Source of the DNA: a bacterium
Lineage (GTDB): Bacteria; Elusimicrobiota; Elusimicrobia; Elusimicrobiales; UBA9959
Direction: 5' to 3'
DNA: 32,809 nucleotides
Assembly (NCBI GenBank): GCA_021811405.1
Contig: JAJZOZ010000013.1
Span: 1 to 32,809 of the forward strand
Part shown: piece by piece, positions 8,341-13,130 of the stretch
How positions within the stretch are numbered: the stretch's first letter is position 1
How the letters are laid out: every line of letters starts with the position of its first letter
Translations under genes and position numbers: made by a program
Notes under the pieces: generated by a model
What the model was told of the DNA's origin: nothing
Seen by the model: only the letters and a program-made list of their open reading frames with translations
The model's database searches: none

Positions 8341-8424
8341 CCGTCCCGGCCCGCTGTTTACGCGCCGCCGGGAATTTAATATCATCCACGGAGGGGCAGA
8401 AATTCCGGCTTGGGGGGTTGGGAA

Positions 8425-10650
8425 ATGAAAAAACTCTGGACCTGGTTCATCCTTATTTGCGCGGGTTCTTTCGCGGTGCTCGGCCTGGTCGGCCGGGACA
8501 TATACCGCAACGCGCCGCCGATACCCGTCAGGGTGATCTCGGCCGGCGGGACGGCCGTGACGGACGACGGGGAGATAGGGCGCGGCCAGGCGGTCTGGCA
8601 GTCCATGGGCGGCATGGAGCTGGGCTCCGTATGGGGGCACGGCAGCTACGTGGCGCCGGACTGGACGGCCGACTGGCTGCACCGCGAGGTGGTCTTCGTG
8701 CTGGACGGGCTGGCGCAAAAGGAATACCGTTCCGCCTACGCCGCGCTCTCGCCGGAAAAGCAGGCCGCGCTGCGCAAGGAGACGGAGCTGATGTTCCGCG
8801 CCAACGCCTACGACCCGGCCTCCGGGACGCTGACCATACCGCCGCTGCGGGCGAAGGCCTTCCGGGAGAACCTGGCGCACTACTCCGGCATCTTCTCCGG
8901 CGGCTCGCCGGCCTTCGCGATACCGGCGGGGGCGCTGAAGGACCCCGCCAAGCTCAGGCAGCTCTGCGCGTTCTTTTTCTGGACCTCCTGGGCTTCCGCG
9001 GCGGACCGCCCCGGCGGCTCCGTCAGCTACACCAATAACTGGCCGCACGAGCCGCTGATAGGCAACGCCCCGACGGGCCAGGCCGTGGTCTGGACCGGCC
9101 TGAGCGTGATACTGCTGCTGGCCGGCATAGCCGGCATGGTCACTTTCTACGCGCGCAGGTCCTACGCGCACTCCCCGGCCGCGCCTCCGCCGGCCGCGGA
9201 CCCGTTCCTGGCGCTGCCGCTGACGCCGTCGCAGAAAGCCGTGCCGTACTATTTCGCGGTGGTGGCGCTGCTCCTGCTGGCGCAGATAGGCGTGGGCGCG
9301 GTGACGGCCCACTACGGCGTGGAAGGCAACGGGTTCTACGGCTTGCCGCTGGACCGCTGGCTGCCTTACGCGGTGACCCGCACCTGGCACATACAGCTGG
9401 GTCTCTTCTGGATAGCCACGGCCTGGCTGGCCTCGGGGCTCTTCATCGGGCCGATAATAGCCGGCCGCGAGCCGGCGGGGCAGGCCGCGGGGACTTACGC
9501 CCTGCTGGCGGCCCTCGCGGTCATAGTGGGGGGCTCGATGGCCGGCGAGTGGGCCTCCGTCTTCCACAAGTTCAAGGGCGACGCCTGGTTCTACTGGGGG
9601 CACCAGGGTTACGAGTACCTGGACCTCGGCCGGGTCTGGCAGGCCGGGCTCTTCGCTGGGCTGCTGCTCTGGCTGGCGCTGCTGGCCAGGTGCGTGCTGC
9701 CCGCCCTTAGGAAGAACGGCGAGGACAGGCACCTGCTGGGCGTCTTCCTGATGTCCACTTTCGCGATAGCGCTGCTCTACGGCGCCGGCCTGATGTGGGG
9801 CGTCCATACCAACCTGACGCTGGCCGAGTACTGGCGCTGGTGGGTGGTGCACCTGTGGGTGGAGGGGTTCTTCGAGGTCTTCGCGACGGTGGTCATAGCC
9901 TTCCTTTTCTACAGGATGGGCCTGGTGGAGCCGGGCGCCGCGGCCAGGGCCTCGCTGCTGTCGTCCACCGTCTACCTGTCCGGCGGCATCATCGGCACGC
10001 TGCACCACCTCTACTTCGCCGGCACACCGGCGGTGGCCATGGCCTTCGGCGCGGTCTTCAGCGCGCTGGAGGTGGTGCCGCTGGTGCTGATGGGCTACGA
10101 GGCCTGGGAGCACGTGCGCGTGGGCCGCATGGCGCCGTGGGTAGAGAACTACAAGTGGCCCATACGCTTTTTCATAGCGGTGGCCTTCTGGAACATGGTG
10201 GGCGCCGGGCTCTTCGGCTTCATGATAAACCCGCCGATAGCGCTGTACTACATGCAGGGCCTCAACACCACTCCGGTGCACGGCCACGGCGCGCTGTTCG
10301 GCGTCTACGGCATGCTGGGGATAGGCCTGATGCTCTTCTGCCTGCGGGCTATCAAACCCGAAGGCAGGTGGAAGGACGGCGCGCTGAACGCCGCCTTCTG
10401 GGGAATGAACGCCGGGCTGGGCATGATGATAGCGCTCAGCCTGCTGCCGCTGGGGCTGCTGCAGACGCTGGCCTCGGTGGACACGGGCTACTGGTACGCG
10501 AGGAGCGAACAGTTCATGCAGGTGCCGCTGATGAACTCGCTGCGCTGGCTGCGCGTGCCCGGGGACACGGTGTTCGCCGCCGGCGTTCTAGCGCTGGCGC
10601 TGTTCCTGGGCGGGCTGGTGACGGGCCATTCCTATGCCCGCGAGGATTAG
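8425..10650 (+). CDS. norZ: Quinol-dependent nitric oxide reductase (qNOR)
   Basis: A 741-aa integral membrane enzyme that reduces two NO to N2O with electrons from quinol. An N-terminal membrane helix and a ~190-residue periplasmic cytochrome-c-like domain without a CxxCH haem motif mark the quinol type (..GQAVWQSMGGMELGSVWGHG..). The catalytic barrel follows, with about 12 more helices. Visible ligands: H322 in TWHIQLG, H476 and the glutamate E480 in HLWVEGF, H527-H528 in GTLHHLYF (FeB), and H619/H621 in PVHGHGA (haem b and b3). ATG 8425 (MKKLWTW) is preferred over TTG 8410. No norQD, nnr or other denitrification gene is adjacent, so a stand-alone NO-detoxification role is likely (inference). 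Family confidence is high. Confidence 0.95.
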   Translation: MKKLWTWFILICAGSFAVLGLVGRDIYRNAPPIPVRVISAGGTAVTDDGEIGRGQAVWQSMGGMELGSVWGHGSYVAPDWTADWLHREVVFVLDGLAQKEYRSAYAALSPEKQAALRKETELMFRANAYDPASGTLTIPPLRAKAFRENLAHYSGIFSGGSPAFAIPAGALKDPAKLRQLCAFFFWTSWASAADRPGGSVSYTNNWPHEPLIGNAPTGQAVVWTGLSVILLLAGIAGMVTFYARRSYAHSPAAPPPAADPFLALPLTPSQKAVPYYFAVVALLLLAQIGVGAVTAHYGVEGNGFYGLPLDRWLPYAVTRTWHIQLGLFWIATAWLASGLFIGPIIAGREPAGQAAGTYALLAALAVIVGGSMAGEWASVFHKFKGDAWFYWGHQGYEYLDLGRVWQAGLFAGLLLWLALLARCVLPALRKNGEDRHLLGVFLMSTFAIALLYGAGLMWGVHTNLTLAEYWRWWVVHLWVEGFFEVFATVVIAFLFYRMGLVEPGAAARASLLSSTVYLSGGIIGTLHHLYFAGTPAVAMAFGAVFSALEVVPLVLMGYEAWEHVRVGRMAPWVENYKWPIRFFIAVAFWNMVGAGLFGFMINPPIALYYMQGLNTTPVHGHGALFGVYGMLGIGLMLFCLRAIKPEGRWKDGALNAAFWGMNAGLGMMIALSLLPLGLLQTLASVDTGYWYARSEQFMQVPLMNSLRWLRVPGDTVFAAGVLALALFLGGLVTGHSYARED

Positions 10651-10698: not shown

Positions 10699-11784
10699 AT
10701 GACCGTGGAAGGCCTCGTCAGGGCCACCAGGCGCTTCTCCCGGGAGGCGGGGCGGCTGCGTTTCGGCGCGCCCGTGGCGCAGGTCTACAACCCGCTCGAC
10801 TACGCCCGCCTGCCCCACGAACAGTACCTGCGCCGCTACGCGGGCCCGGCCAGGACGGCCGTCTTCCTGGGGATGAACCCGGGTCCTTTCGGCATGGCCC
10901 AGACCGGGGTGCCTTTCGGCGACGCGGAGATGGCGCGGGGCTGGCTGGGCATAGACGCCCGGGTGGGCAGGCCGCCCCGCGAGAACCCGAAGCGGCCGGT
11001 GTACGGGTTCGCGTGCCCGCGCGCGGAGGTGAGCGGCAGGCGGTTCTGGGGCGCCATAGCCCGGCTGTACGGGACCCCGGAGGATTTTTTCTCCCGCTTC
11101 TTCGTAGCCAACTACTGCCCGCTGGTGTTCATGGAGGCCGGCGGGCGCAACCTGACCCCGGACAGGCTGCGCCGCGCCGAAAGGGAAGCACTTTACGCCG
11201 TCTGCGACGAGTACCTGCGGCGCAGTCTCGAGCTCTTCTCTCCCCGCTGGGTCGTGGGGATAGGCCGCTTCGCGGCGGGGCGCGCCGGGGAGGCCCTGGC
11301 CGGCGGCGGGGCGCGCATAGCCGCGGTCCCGCATCCCAGCCCGGCCAGCCCGGCGGCTAACAGGGACTGGGCCGGGGCTTTCGCCCGCAGGCTGGGAGAA
11401 CTGGGCCTGGCGGGTAAGGCCGGACCGGGAGGAAGCGCGATGGTGAGGATAAAAAGGATCTACGAAAAACCTTCGGCCGGGGACGGCCTGCGCGTCCTCG
11501 TCGACAGGCTCTGGCCGAGGGGAGTCTCGAAGGCGGCGGCGAAGCTGGACCTCTGGCTCAAGGAGGCCGCGCCCTCGGACGGCACCCGCAAGTGGTTCGG
11601 CCACGATCCGTCCCGCTGGGAGGGCTTCCGGGAGCGCTACCTGGCGGAGCTCGGGGCCCGGCCCGGCGCGCTGGCGCAGCTCCGGGAGCTGTGCGCCAGG
11701 GGCACCGTTACGCTGCTCTACGCGGCCAGCGACCCGGAGCACAATAACGCCGTAGTCCTCAGGGACCTGCTTTCCCGCGGCTAG
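10699..11784 (+). CDS. SMUG1-like uracil-DNA glycosylase fused to DUF488 domain
   Basis: A 361-aa protein with two unrelated parts. Residues 1-~235 are a SMUG1-type uracil-DNA glycosylase that starts base-excision repair: GMNPGPFGMAQTGVPFG at 58-74, with N60 in the active-site motif, and PHPSPASP with H212. Residues ~248-361 match the YeaO-like DUF488 family: IKRIYEKPS, VDRLWPRG with R270 and R274, KWFGHDPSRW and LLYAASDPEHNN. DUF488 function is not established. The joint is striking: GGGAGGAAGCGCG precedes an in-frame ATG at 11440 (M248), so the DUF488 part may also be translated alone. The gene lies 48 bp after the NO reductase in the same direction; NO-derived nitrosative stress deaminates cytosine to uracil, so a shared role is conceivable but unproven. 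Confidence 0.9.
   Translation: MTVEGLVRATRRFSREAGRLRFGAPVAQVYNPLDYARLPHEQYLRRYAGPARTAVFLGMNPGPFGMAQTGVPFGDAEMARGWLGIDARVGRPPRENPKRPVYGFACPRAEVSGRRFWGAIARLYGTPEDFFSRFFVANYCPLVFMEAGGRNLTPDRLRRAEREALYAVCDEYLRRSLELFSPRWVVGIGRFAAGRAGEALAGGGARIAAVPHPSPASPAANRDWAGAFARRLGELGLAGKAGPGGSAMVRIKRIYEKPSAGDGLRVLVDRLWPRGVSKAAAKLDLWLKEAAPSDGTRKWFGHDPSRWEGFRERYLAELGARPGALAQLRELCARGTVTLLYAASDPEHNNAVVLRDLLSRG
11440..11784 (+). other. Possible internal start giving a free DUF488 protein
   Basis: Within the SMUG1-DUF488 gene, GGGAGGAAGCGCG ends directly before ATG 11440, an excellent ribosome site with about 7 nt spacing. Translation from here gives a 114-aa protein equal to a stand-alone YeaO-like DUF488 protein. 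This is either a relic of two formerly separate genes or a functional second start. Confidence 0.4.
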
Positions 11785-11870: not shown

Positions 11871-13130
11871 ATGAGCACACTCCTTCAGGCTTTAAAGACG
11901 GAGCGCGGCCGCCACGTGGCGGGCGCCGTTTTCCTGGCGGGCCTGTCCGCCATGTTCCTGTTCTGCGGCTACGAGTTCATCCGCTCGCCCGCGGAGTCCA
12001 TCTTCATCGACAAGTTCGGCGCGGGCGCCAAGCCCTACGCCATAGCTCTCGTGCCGTTCATGATGGCCGCGATGATCTACGGCTACGGGCGCCTGCTTTC
12101 GGCCGTCGGCGCCAAGAAGGCGATGGCCGCGTCGATGTTGCTGAGCGCGGCCTTCTTCCTCGTGGCCTGGGCCATGCTGGGCCGCGCCGGGAAATGGTTC
12201 GCCTTCTTCCTGCTGGTCTTCAAGGAATCCTACGTAGTGATCATCTCTGAGCAGTACTGGTCCTTCGTCAACAGCGTGCTGAAGGACGAGGAGGGCAAGA
12301 TCTACAACGGCCCGGTGGCCGGGCTCGGCGCGCTCGGCTCGCTGTGCGGCGGCTGGCTGCTCGGCCATTACGCCGTGGGGCTGGGCACCAGGACCTTCGT
12401 GCTGTTCGCGGGCCTGGTGATACTGCCGGCGGCGGTGCTGTCGTGGCTGGGCTACGAGAAGGCCGGCGAGCCGAAACCGTCCGAGGCTGAGGCGGGCGGG
12501 AAGAAAGGGCACCTGCACCTGAGCATCCTGACCGAGAACCGCACCGTGCTGTTCATCGCGTTCATCATCTTCTCCGCGCAGGTGGTGGCCACCGCGCTGG
12601 ACTTCCGCTGGACCCAGCTGCTGCAGGACTTCCTGCCGGATATGGACGCGCGCACGGCCTACATGGGCCGCTTCTGGATGCACGTGAACATCTTCTCGTT
12701 CTCGATGCAGTTCCTGGCCACCCCGTTCCTGCTCAGATGGATACCGCGCCGGGGCATCCTGACCTTCATCCCCGCCGTGCATATAGTCACCTGCCTGCTG
12801 CTGTTCCTGCACCCGACGCTGGGGCTGGCCTCCGCGGCCTTCCTGCTGTTCAAGGGGATGGATTATTCCATCTTCCGGGCCTCCAAAGAGACGCTGTACA
12901 TACCGTTCTCCTACGATACCCGCTACCGCGCCAAGCAGGTGGCCGAGGCCTTCACCTACAGGTTCGCCAAGGGCCTGACTGCGACGTGGGTCTCCGCGCT
13001 GAAGACGCTGGGCACGGTGGCGCAGGGCTTCTACCCGGCGCTCGGGGCCATCTTCGCTTCCGCGTGGCTGGTGATGTCGTTCCCGCTCACGGCGGACCGC
13101 AGGCCGCCGGAGGAAAAAGCCGCCGCCTGA
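11871..13130 (+). CDS. Tlc/NTT-like (ATP:ADP antiporter family) membrane transporter
   Basis: A 419-aa polytopic membrane protein with roughly 10-12 hydrophobic helices and a polar linker near residues 200-225 (..EPKPSEAEAGGKKGH..) dividing two halves. The C-terminal half contains ALDFRWTQLLQDF and RASKETLYIPFSYDTRYRAKQ followed by a 'YRFAKG' segment, resembling the conserved 'R...KE.LY.P...YKAK..D...R' region of nucleotide translocases (AAA/Tlc family) and their MFS-like relatives in free-living bacteria. True NTT antiporters are usually near 500 aa and exchange ATP/ADP in intracellular parasites. This shorter form in a probably free-living organism may carry another substrate, so substrate is left open. 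A -10 box lies at the start codon; a shared terminator follows. Confidence 0.7.
   Translation: MSTLLQALKTERGRHVAGAVFLAGLSAMFLFCGYEFIRSPAESIFIDKFGAGAKPYAIALVPFMMAAMIYGYGRLLSAVGAKKAMAASMLLSAAFFLVAWAMLGRAGKWFAFFLLVFKESYVVIISEQYWSFVNSVLKDEEGKIYNGPVAGLGALGSLCGGWLLGHYAVGLGTRTFVLFAGLVILPAAVLSWLGYEKAGEPKPSEAEAGGKKGHLHLSILTENRTVLFIAFIIFSAQVVATALDFRWTQLLQDFLPDMDARTAYMGRFWMHVNIFSFSMQFLATPFLLRWIPRRGILTFIPAVHIVTCLLLFLHPTLGLASAAFLLFKGMDYSIFRASKETLYIPFSYDTRYRAKQVAEAFTYRFAKGLTATWVSALKTLGTVAQGFYPALGAIFASAWLVMSFPLTADRRPPEEKAAA

What the first reader, a model, noticed from the sequence alone, without database searches (positions are those of the whole stretch)
10699..11784. Uracil-DNA glycosylase SMUG1 fused to DUF488
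SMUG1 (base-excision repair) and YeaO-like DUF488 (no established function) are joined in one frame. The fusion offers a guilt-by-association hint that DUF488 works in DNA repair or nucleotide damage. It sits right behind an NO reductase, and NO chemistry creates uracil in DNA.
Basis: partly seen in the sequence, partly recalled or inferred. Interest (0 to 1): 0.7.

Follow-up and report, generated by a model that had tools for sequence, protein, structure and literature searches.

The report
Repair-enzyme fusion in nitric-oxide operon
In one lineage of Elusimicrobiota bacteria a DNA-repair enzyme that removes damaged bases has become fused, right behind a nitric-oxide-removing enzyme, to a small protein of unknown role (DUF488) whose own recurrent gene neighbours in several phyla are nitric-oxide-defence genes rather than repair genes.

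Summary
Window 10699-11784 is one frame of 361 codons: a complete SMUG1 (aa 1-237, 290 bits to Geobacter SMUG1, both catalytic motifs) plus a complete DUF488-N3i domain (248-359), 48 nt after a quinol NO reductase. A congeneric genome (88% aa identity) has the same stop-free fusion behind the same norB; both halves are under purifying selection. In another genus of the family the two genes are separate and overlap by 14 nt out of frame, so the fusion came from a coupled pair. A Shine-Dalgarno sequence and start codon at the DUF488 boundary persist in all three, so free DUF488 may still be made.

The inference that DUF488 works in DNA repair is not supported: among the 80 best SMUG1 loci across GTDB only that overlapping pair has DUF488 nearby, and in 18 genomes of two other phyla with both genes they are never adjacent. 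Instead DUF488 recurs beside hemerythrins, NO reductases, ScdA/DUF2249 proteins, haemoglobins and NnrS (18 of 89 loci versus 2 of 67 controls). Best reading: an operon-born fusion joining two parts of a nitrosative-stress response, NO removal and base repair. Activity and NO induction are untested.

The parts
8410..10650 (+). norB, quinol-type nitric oxide reductase (listed from TTG 8410; ATG at 8425 is the likelier start)
   Evidence: Pfam NorB_cytochrome_c-like 209 bits and COX1 183 bits; same gene in same place in G007
10699..11784 (+). SMUG1-DUF488 fusion gene, 361 aa
   Evidence: same fusion in G007, 88% identity
10699..11409 (+). SMUG1 domain (aa 1-237); motif I GMNPGPFGMAQTGVPFG (N60), motif II HPSPASPAANRDW (H212)
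   Evidence: phmmer to GmeSMUG1 5h93 E 1.6e-85 with both motifs aligned; dN/dS 0.13
11410..11439 (+). linker, aa 238-247; fastest-changing part, same length and no stop in both fused genomes
   Evidence: dN/dS 0.37 over 10 codons
11428..11442 (+). GGAGG plus ATG/GTG: likely retained internal ribosome-binding site and start codon of DUF488
   Evidence: also present in G007 (GGAGG..GTG) and, as true gene start, in G151; pattern not expected by chance in the window
11440..11781 (+). DUF488-N3i domain (aa 248-361), no active-site cysteine
   Evidence: alignments; dN/dS 0.18; model pLDDT 94, best structural matches RapZ C-terminal domain

Best explanation
The gene is a genuine, recent fusion of two previously separate, probably translationally coupled genes, lying in an NO-reductase operon. 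SHOWN: the fused frame in two species; an overlapping two-gene, ancestor-like arrangement in a third; purifying selection on both halves; NorB directly upstream in both fused species; DUF488-N3i in this phylum and some others sitting in NO/hemerythrin clusters. INFERRED: when NO rises, NorB reduces NO to N2O, SMUG1 removes uracil and xanthine left by nitrosative deamination as an add-on to the housekeeping UDGs, and DUF488, a rhodanese/phosphatase-like fold without the catalytic cysteine, acts as a binding or regulatory part of the same stress response. The fusion mainly fixes co-expression. Because the DUF488 ribosome-binding site is kept, some DUF488 is probably also made alone.
For: Fusion conserved in G007, same length, no stop. 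G151: SMUG1 248 aa and DUF488 116 aa as separate genes overlapping 14 nt in another frame. The DUF488s of the three form one supported clade, SH-aLRT 95, so one origin. dN/dS 0.13 and 0.18. NorB adjacent in both fused genomes; G007 also has a DUF438-hemerythrin-PAS gene beside the fusion. In another Elusimicrobiota family qNor-DUF488-cupin-hemerythrin (L144) and Crp/FNR, ScdA_N-DUF2249, COX1-like, hemerythrin around DUF488 (L147, L150). Desulfobacterota L368: NorB-hemerythrin-PAS-DUF488 on one strand. Plasmids: Hmp-DUF488 adjacent, 2 nt between the genes; DUF488 in nor/nnr clusters and beside trHb, hemerythrin, NnrS. Totals 18/89 versus 2/67 controls, p 0.0009; without loci that supplied query seeds 13/84 versus 2/67, p 0.009. 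The own genome has two other UDG-superfamily genes. Published: NO damages DNA bases repaired by Ung/Fpg (PMC2680585); SMUG1 excises xanthine (PMC12699328).
Against: NO genes are near only about a fifth of sampled DUF488-N3i loci, and only 2 of 32 in Pseudomonadota. Outside Elusimicrobiota alone the total is 8/70 versus 1/47, p 0.06. SMUG1 in general has no NO neighbours (0 of 93 loci). The unfused pair in G151 has no NO genes nearby. No expression or activity data.
Confidence: 0.55

Rival explanations
1. Fortuitous read-through fusion: two operon neighbours lost the stop between them by a small indel in the overlap. The joined protein has no joint function and DUF488 simply rides along as a tolerated C-terminal domain.
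For: Only two genomes carry the fusion; the overlap state in G151 makes fusion a one-indel event; the linker is fast-changing; the internal start signals are kept. SMUG1 and DUF488 are not associated elsewhere.
Against: The fused frame has survived synonymous divergence of about 0.44 with no stop or frameshift, both domains are constrained, and the NO operon setting fits both halves.
Confidence: 0.25
2. DUF488 is itself a DNA- or nucleotide-damage factor working with SMUG1, e.g. processing ends or binding abasic sites.
For: Physical fusion; the RapZ-C/DUF488 clade has been proposed, as I recall from a 2023 comparative study that is not held, to act on sugar-phosphates and nucleic-acid ends; the model matches the C-terminal domain of the RNA-binding protein RapZ.
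Against: No repeated SMUG1-DUF488 linkage: 1 of 80 SMUG1 loci and 0 of 18 genomes with both genes in two other phyla. N3i lacks the active cysteine. Recurrent partners are NO genes.
Confidence: 0.12
3. The fusion product matters little: the cell mainly uses free DUF488 made from the internal start, so functionally these are still two proteins.
For: GGAGG with 7-nt spacing before ATG (window), GTG (G007), and the true start ATG in G151.
Against: No stop codon lies between the halves, so full-length fusion must be made whenever SMUG1 is; SD-like sequence is easy to come by in GC-rich DNA.
Confidence: 0.08

Closest known systems
Geobacter metallireducens SMUG1 (PDB 5h93; uracil/xanthine DNA glycosylase)
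   Same: Whole SMUG1 half aligns, both catalytic motifs present
   Different: The Geobacter enzyme is a free 240-aa protein; in the Geobacter genome searched here SMUG1 and DUF488 lie 292 kb apart
DUF488-N3i family (PF22752; the family model also rings in E. coli, the YeaO group)
   Same: Full-length domain hit, conserved DRLWPRG, APS and HNNA-type motifs, cysteine lost
   Different: Normally a free protein of about 115 aa; here fused behind SMUG1
NO-detoxification clusters (norB, hmp, NnrS, ScdA/Ric and hemerythrin genes)
   Same: NorB directly upstream; hemerythrin gene adjacent in G007; DUF488 is a member of such clusters in Elusimicrobiota, Desulfobacterota and alphaproteobacterial plasmids
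   Different: None of the others found here carries SMUG1
RapZ C-terminal domain (structural relative of DUF488)
   Same: Best structural match of the model, Z 5.7 over 85 residues
   Different: 9-10% identity; Z in the range the tool calls middling; RapZ is an RNA-binding regulator

Membership tests
SMUG1 (family 3 UDG) | Motif I GMNPGPFGMAQTGVPFG with catalytic Asn | tested here: met
   N60 in GMNPGPFGMAQTGVPFG, aligned to the GmeSMUG1 Asn that differs in chain 5h99; invariant in alignment A2
SMUG1 (family 3 UDG) | Motif II HPSP-x-P-x-AN with catalytic His | tested here: met
   H212 HPSPASPAANRDW
SMUG1 (family 3 UDG) | Excises uracil or xanthine from DNA | not testable with these tools
   needs enzyme assay
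DUF488-N3i (PF22752) | Score above curated cut-off and above sister N3a model | tested here: met
   136.1 bits versus cut-off 27; N3a 83.1 bits
DUF488-N3i (PF22752) | Active-site cysteine of the N3a type absent | tested here: met
   LLYAASDPEHNNA here versus LLCACRNESRCHR in an N3a-like domain, L155
Rhodanese/phosphatase-RapZ fold | Rossmann-like fold related to RapZ-C and dual-specificity phosphatases | tested here: inconclusive
   confident model (pLDDT 93.9); RapZ-C and DUSP/PRL-2 among top matches but Z only about 4-5.7, Foldseek no E below 0.001
True gene fusion | In-frame, no stop, in more than one genome, both domains constrained | tested here: met
True gene fusion | Single polypeptide made in the cell | not testable with these tools
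   needs proteomics; internal start signals kept
General SMUG1-DUF488 functional pair | Repeated adjacency or fusion in unrelated lineages | tested here: not met
   1/80 SMUG1 loci, that one being the same family; 0 of 18 genomes with both genes in Myxococcota and Desulfobacterota
NO-stress gene cluster | Adjacent NO-reducing or NO-responsive genes, more often than control regions | tested here: met
   18/89 DUF488 loci versus 2/67 controls, p 0.0009; 13/84 after removing seed loci, p 0.009; mostly carried by Elusimicrobiota
NO-stress gene cluster | Expression induced by NO | not testable with these tools
   needs expression data

The most novel reading that the evidence does not exclude
DUF488-N3i (YeaO-like) proteins are a previously unrecognised component of bacterial nitrosative-stress defence, working with hemerythrins and NO reductases, and this lineage physically couples that component to a base-excision glycosylase: an NO-dedicated repair protein.
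Probability: 0.3. Interest if true: 0.7.

Novelty: new variant of a known kind. Interest (0 to 1): 0.45.

Why it matters
DUF488/YeaO is widespread and has no known function. The fusion points at a context that comparative genomics then supports: NO removal and hemerythrin genes, in at least three phyla. That gives a concrete, cheap hypothesis (NO sensitivity of a yeaO deletion) for an orphan family. If the fusion works as proposed, NO removal and repair of NO-damaged bases would be wired into one operon.

Tried and rejected
Assembly or sequencing error as the cause of the fusion: rejected, a second genome at 88% aa identity has the identical layout. General SMUG1-DUF488 association: rejected. 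NO genes near SMUG1 in general: 0 of 80 GTDB loci and 0 of 13 Elusimicrobiota SMUG1-only loci; weak reductase-domain hits of the Hmp query were discarded as non-globin. NO-linked DUF488s as one clade: not supported, the label is scattered on a poorly resolved tree. PDB sequence relatives of DUF488: none convincing. Foldseek PDB search: no match with E below 0.001. Viral relatives: SMUG1 none; DUF488 47, most at contig ends, probably host genes beside prophages. A combined SMUG1+DUF488 alignment for a full-length model misaligned the fragments and was not used. The comparative study that I believe lies behind the N3 subclade names could not be read. No held paper joins DUF488 with NO biology or with glycosylases in a relevant way (the one paper with both DUF488 and nitric oxide was not read). 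A few calls failed on coordinates or handles.

Full report
WHAT IS THERE. The frame 10699-11784 (+) codes for 361 residues without a stop. Residues 1-237 are a complete SMUG1: phmmer E 1.6e-85 to Geobacter metallireducens SMUG1 (PDB 5h93), with motif I GMNPGPFGMAQTGVPFG (N60) and motif II HPSPASPAANRDW (H212) intact. Residues 248-359 are a complete DUF488-N3i domain (Pfam PF22752, 136 bits against a cut-off of 27). The gene starts 48 nt after the stop of a quinol-type NO reductase (NorB_cytochrome_c-like 209 bits).

IS IT MORE THAN A ONE-GENOME ACCIDENT. In G007, same genus, the identical 361-codon fusion occurs at 88% identity, again behind NorB. In G151, another genus of the family, SMUG1 (248 aa) and DUF488 (116 aa) are separate genes on one strand that overlap by 14 nt in different frames. 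In G017 and G001, same genus, SMUG1 stands alone and no DUF488 was found in the genome at the search threshold. Across 341 genomes of the phylum, SMUG1 or a SMUG-like relative occurs in about 15 and DUF488 in 18; the three genomes with both are exactly the fused or overlapping ones. The three DUF488s form one supported clade. So the pair arose once, as an overlapping, presumably translationally coupled pair, and most simply an indel in the overlap later fused it.

SELECTION AND START SIGNALS. Between the window and G007, dN/dS is 0.13 for SMUG1, 0.18 for DUF488 and 0.37 for the ten-codon linker (few sites); dS over the gene is about 0.44. Both halves are thus under constraint. At the boundary the window has GGAGG-AAGCGCG-ATG, G007 GGAGG-GAACGCG-GTG, and G151 GGGGGAGG before the real DUF488 ATG. 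The internal start probably still works, so the cell may make both the fusion and free DUF488. This is inference.

DOES THE FUSION SAY THAT DUF488 IS A REPAIR PROTEIN. Among the 80 best SMUG1 loci in GTDB genomes, with up to 6 kb of flank on each side, only one has DUF488 nearby, and it is G151 itself. In 189 Myxococcota and 198 Desulfobacterota genomes, 18 hold both genes and none has them adjacent; where they share a contig they are 0.29 and 2.6 Mb apart. So there is no general SMUG1-DUF488 partnership, and the guilt-by-association argument towards DNA repair fails as stated.

WHAT DUF488 IS ASSOCIATED WITH. In an unsupervised clustering of genes near 65 DUF488 loci, the recurrent partners in Elusimicrobiota were NO-related. 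Pfam confirmed, around L147 and L150, Crp/FNR-type regulators, ScdA_N (DUF542)-DUF2249 proteins, a COX1-like membrane protein (Pfam hit in L150, homologue in L147 without one) and hemerythrins, and around L144 a cupin and a hemerythrin; L144 also has qNor. G007 has a DUF438-hemerythrin-PAS gene next to the fusion. In Desulfobacterota L368 a single strand reads NorB, hemerythrin, a PAS-like protein, DUF488; L365 and L375 have a hemerythrin gene directly next to DUF488. On plasmids, DUF488 follows flavohaemoglobin Hmp with 2 nt between them (Komagataeibacter), lies in nor/nnr denitrification clusters (Agrobacterium) and beside truncated haemoglobin, hemerythrin or NnrS. Other plasmid loci showed no such partner.

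NUMBERS AND THEIR LIMITS. With one set of NO-module query proteins, DUF488 loci with at least one hit were: Elusimicrobiota 10/19, Pseudomonadota 2/32, Desulfobacterota 4/24, Myxococcota 2/14. Control windows from such genomes: 1/20, 0/28 and 1/19. Together 18/89 versus 2/67, Fisher p 0.0009; removing the loci that supplied query proteins, 13/84 versus 2/67, p 0.009; hemerythrin alone outside Elusimicrobiota 7/70 versus 0/47, p 0.024; all NO genes outside Elusimicrobiota 8/70 versus 1/47, p 0.06. Loci are not fully independent (some genomes are related; the Pseudomonadota set of 32 includes one Geobacter and one Myxococcota locus), the query set was extended after seeing Elusimicrobiota neighbourhoods, and plasmid loci were picked from a search, so they are not in these totals. 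Presence of qNor and DUF488 in the phylum also correlates (5 versus 1.5 expected, p 0.010). The association is real in Elusimicrobiota, suggestive elsewhere, and far from universal.

HOW IT PROBABLY WORKS. Published work shows that NO damages cytosine and guanine in bacterial DNA and that base-excision glycosylases matter for surviving it (Salmonella, PMC2680585). SMUG1 enzymes excise uracil and also xanthine, and GmeSMUG1 was crystallised with xanthine (PMC12699328). The genome has two other UDG-superfamily genes, so SMUG1 here is an add-on. The simplest account is a NO-response operon: NorB lowers NO, SMUG1 clears deaminated bases, and DUF488-N3i contributes a non-cysteine function of the NO/hemerythrin module, perhaps ligand binding or protein regulation. 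The DUF488 model is confident (pLDDT 94) and its best structural matches are the RapZ C-terminal domain, with dual-specificity phosphatases further down, at modest Z (about 4-5.7). The cysteine loop of the active subclade (LLCACRNESRCHR in L155) is replaced by LLYAASDPEHNNA. The biochemical role of DUF488 remains the weakest step.

CONCLUSION. Observation confirmed; interpretation partly supported. The fusion is a lineage-specific, operon-derived variant of two known families. The more useful result is the recurrent NO/hemerythrin context of DUF488-N3i; the held literature showed no mention of it, though the most relevant comparative study could not be read.

Noticed in passing
L368:6920-10953: Desulfobacterota strand reading qNor, hemerythrin, PAS-like protein, DUF488-N3i, next to a superoxide-dismutase-like gene: an independent parallel to the window's NorB-DUF488 arrangement.
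   Followed up: partly
L147:491-4658 and L150:6897-12430: Elusimicrobiota clusters of Crp/FNR regulator, ScdA_N-DUF2249 proteins, a COX1-like membrane protein (the L147 copy has no Pfam hit) and hemerythrin around DUF488: an apparent NO-stress island.
   Followed up: partly
L137:4983-6397, L138:4959-7106, L139:4345-6382: In Rhodobacterales plasmids DUF488 sits directly before nitronate monooxygenase and, in two of three, beside 5-formyltetrahydrofolate cyclo-ligase.
   Followed up: no
L316-L359 (position 1 of most loci): A DUF488 (YeaO-like) gene lies exactly at the edge of many predicted prophage contigs, suggesting a recurrent integration site beside it or prophage boundary miscalls.
   Followed up: no
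G000:C46:5124-5642: The window's genome holds a second quinol NO reductase besides the one at 8410-10650.
   Followed up: no
window 11871-13130: Gene downstream of the fusion is an MFS/ATP-ADP-translocase (TLC)-like transporter; only a weak TLC score (27 bits).
   Followed up: no
L200 and L216 (G403:C1:2264000-2288000): One Pseudomonadota genome has two DUF488-N3i genes about 10 kb apart in a region with nitrate-transporter-like genes and norCB.
   Followed up: partly
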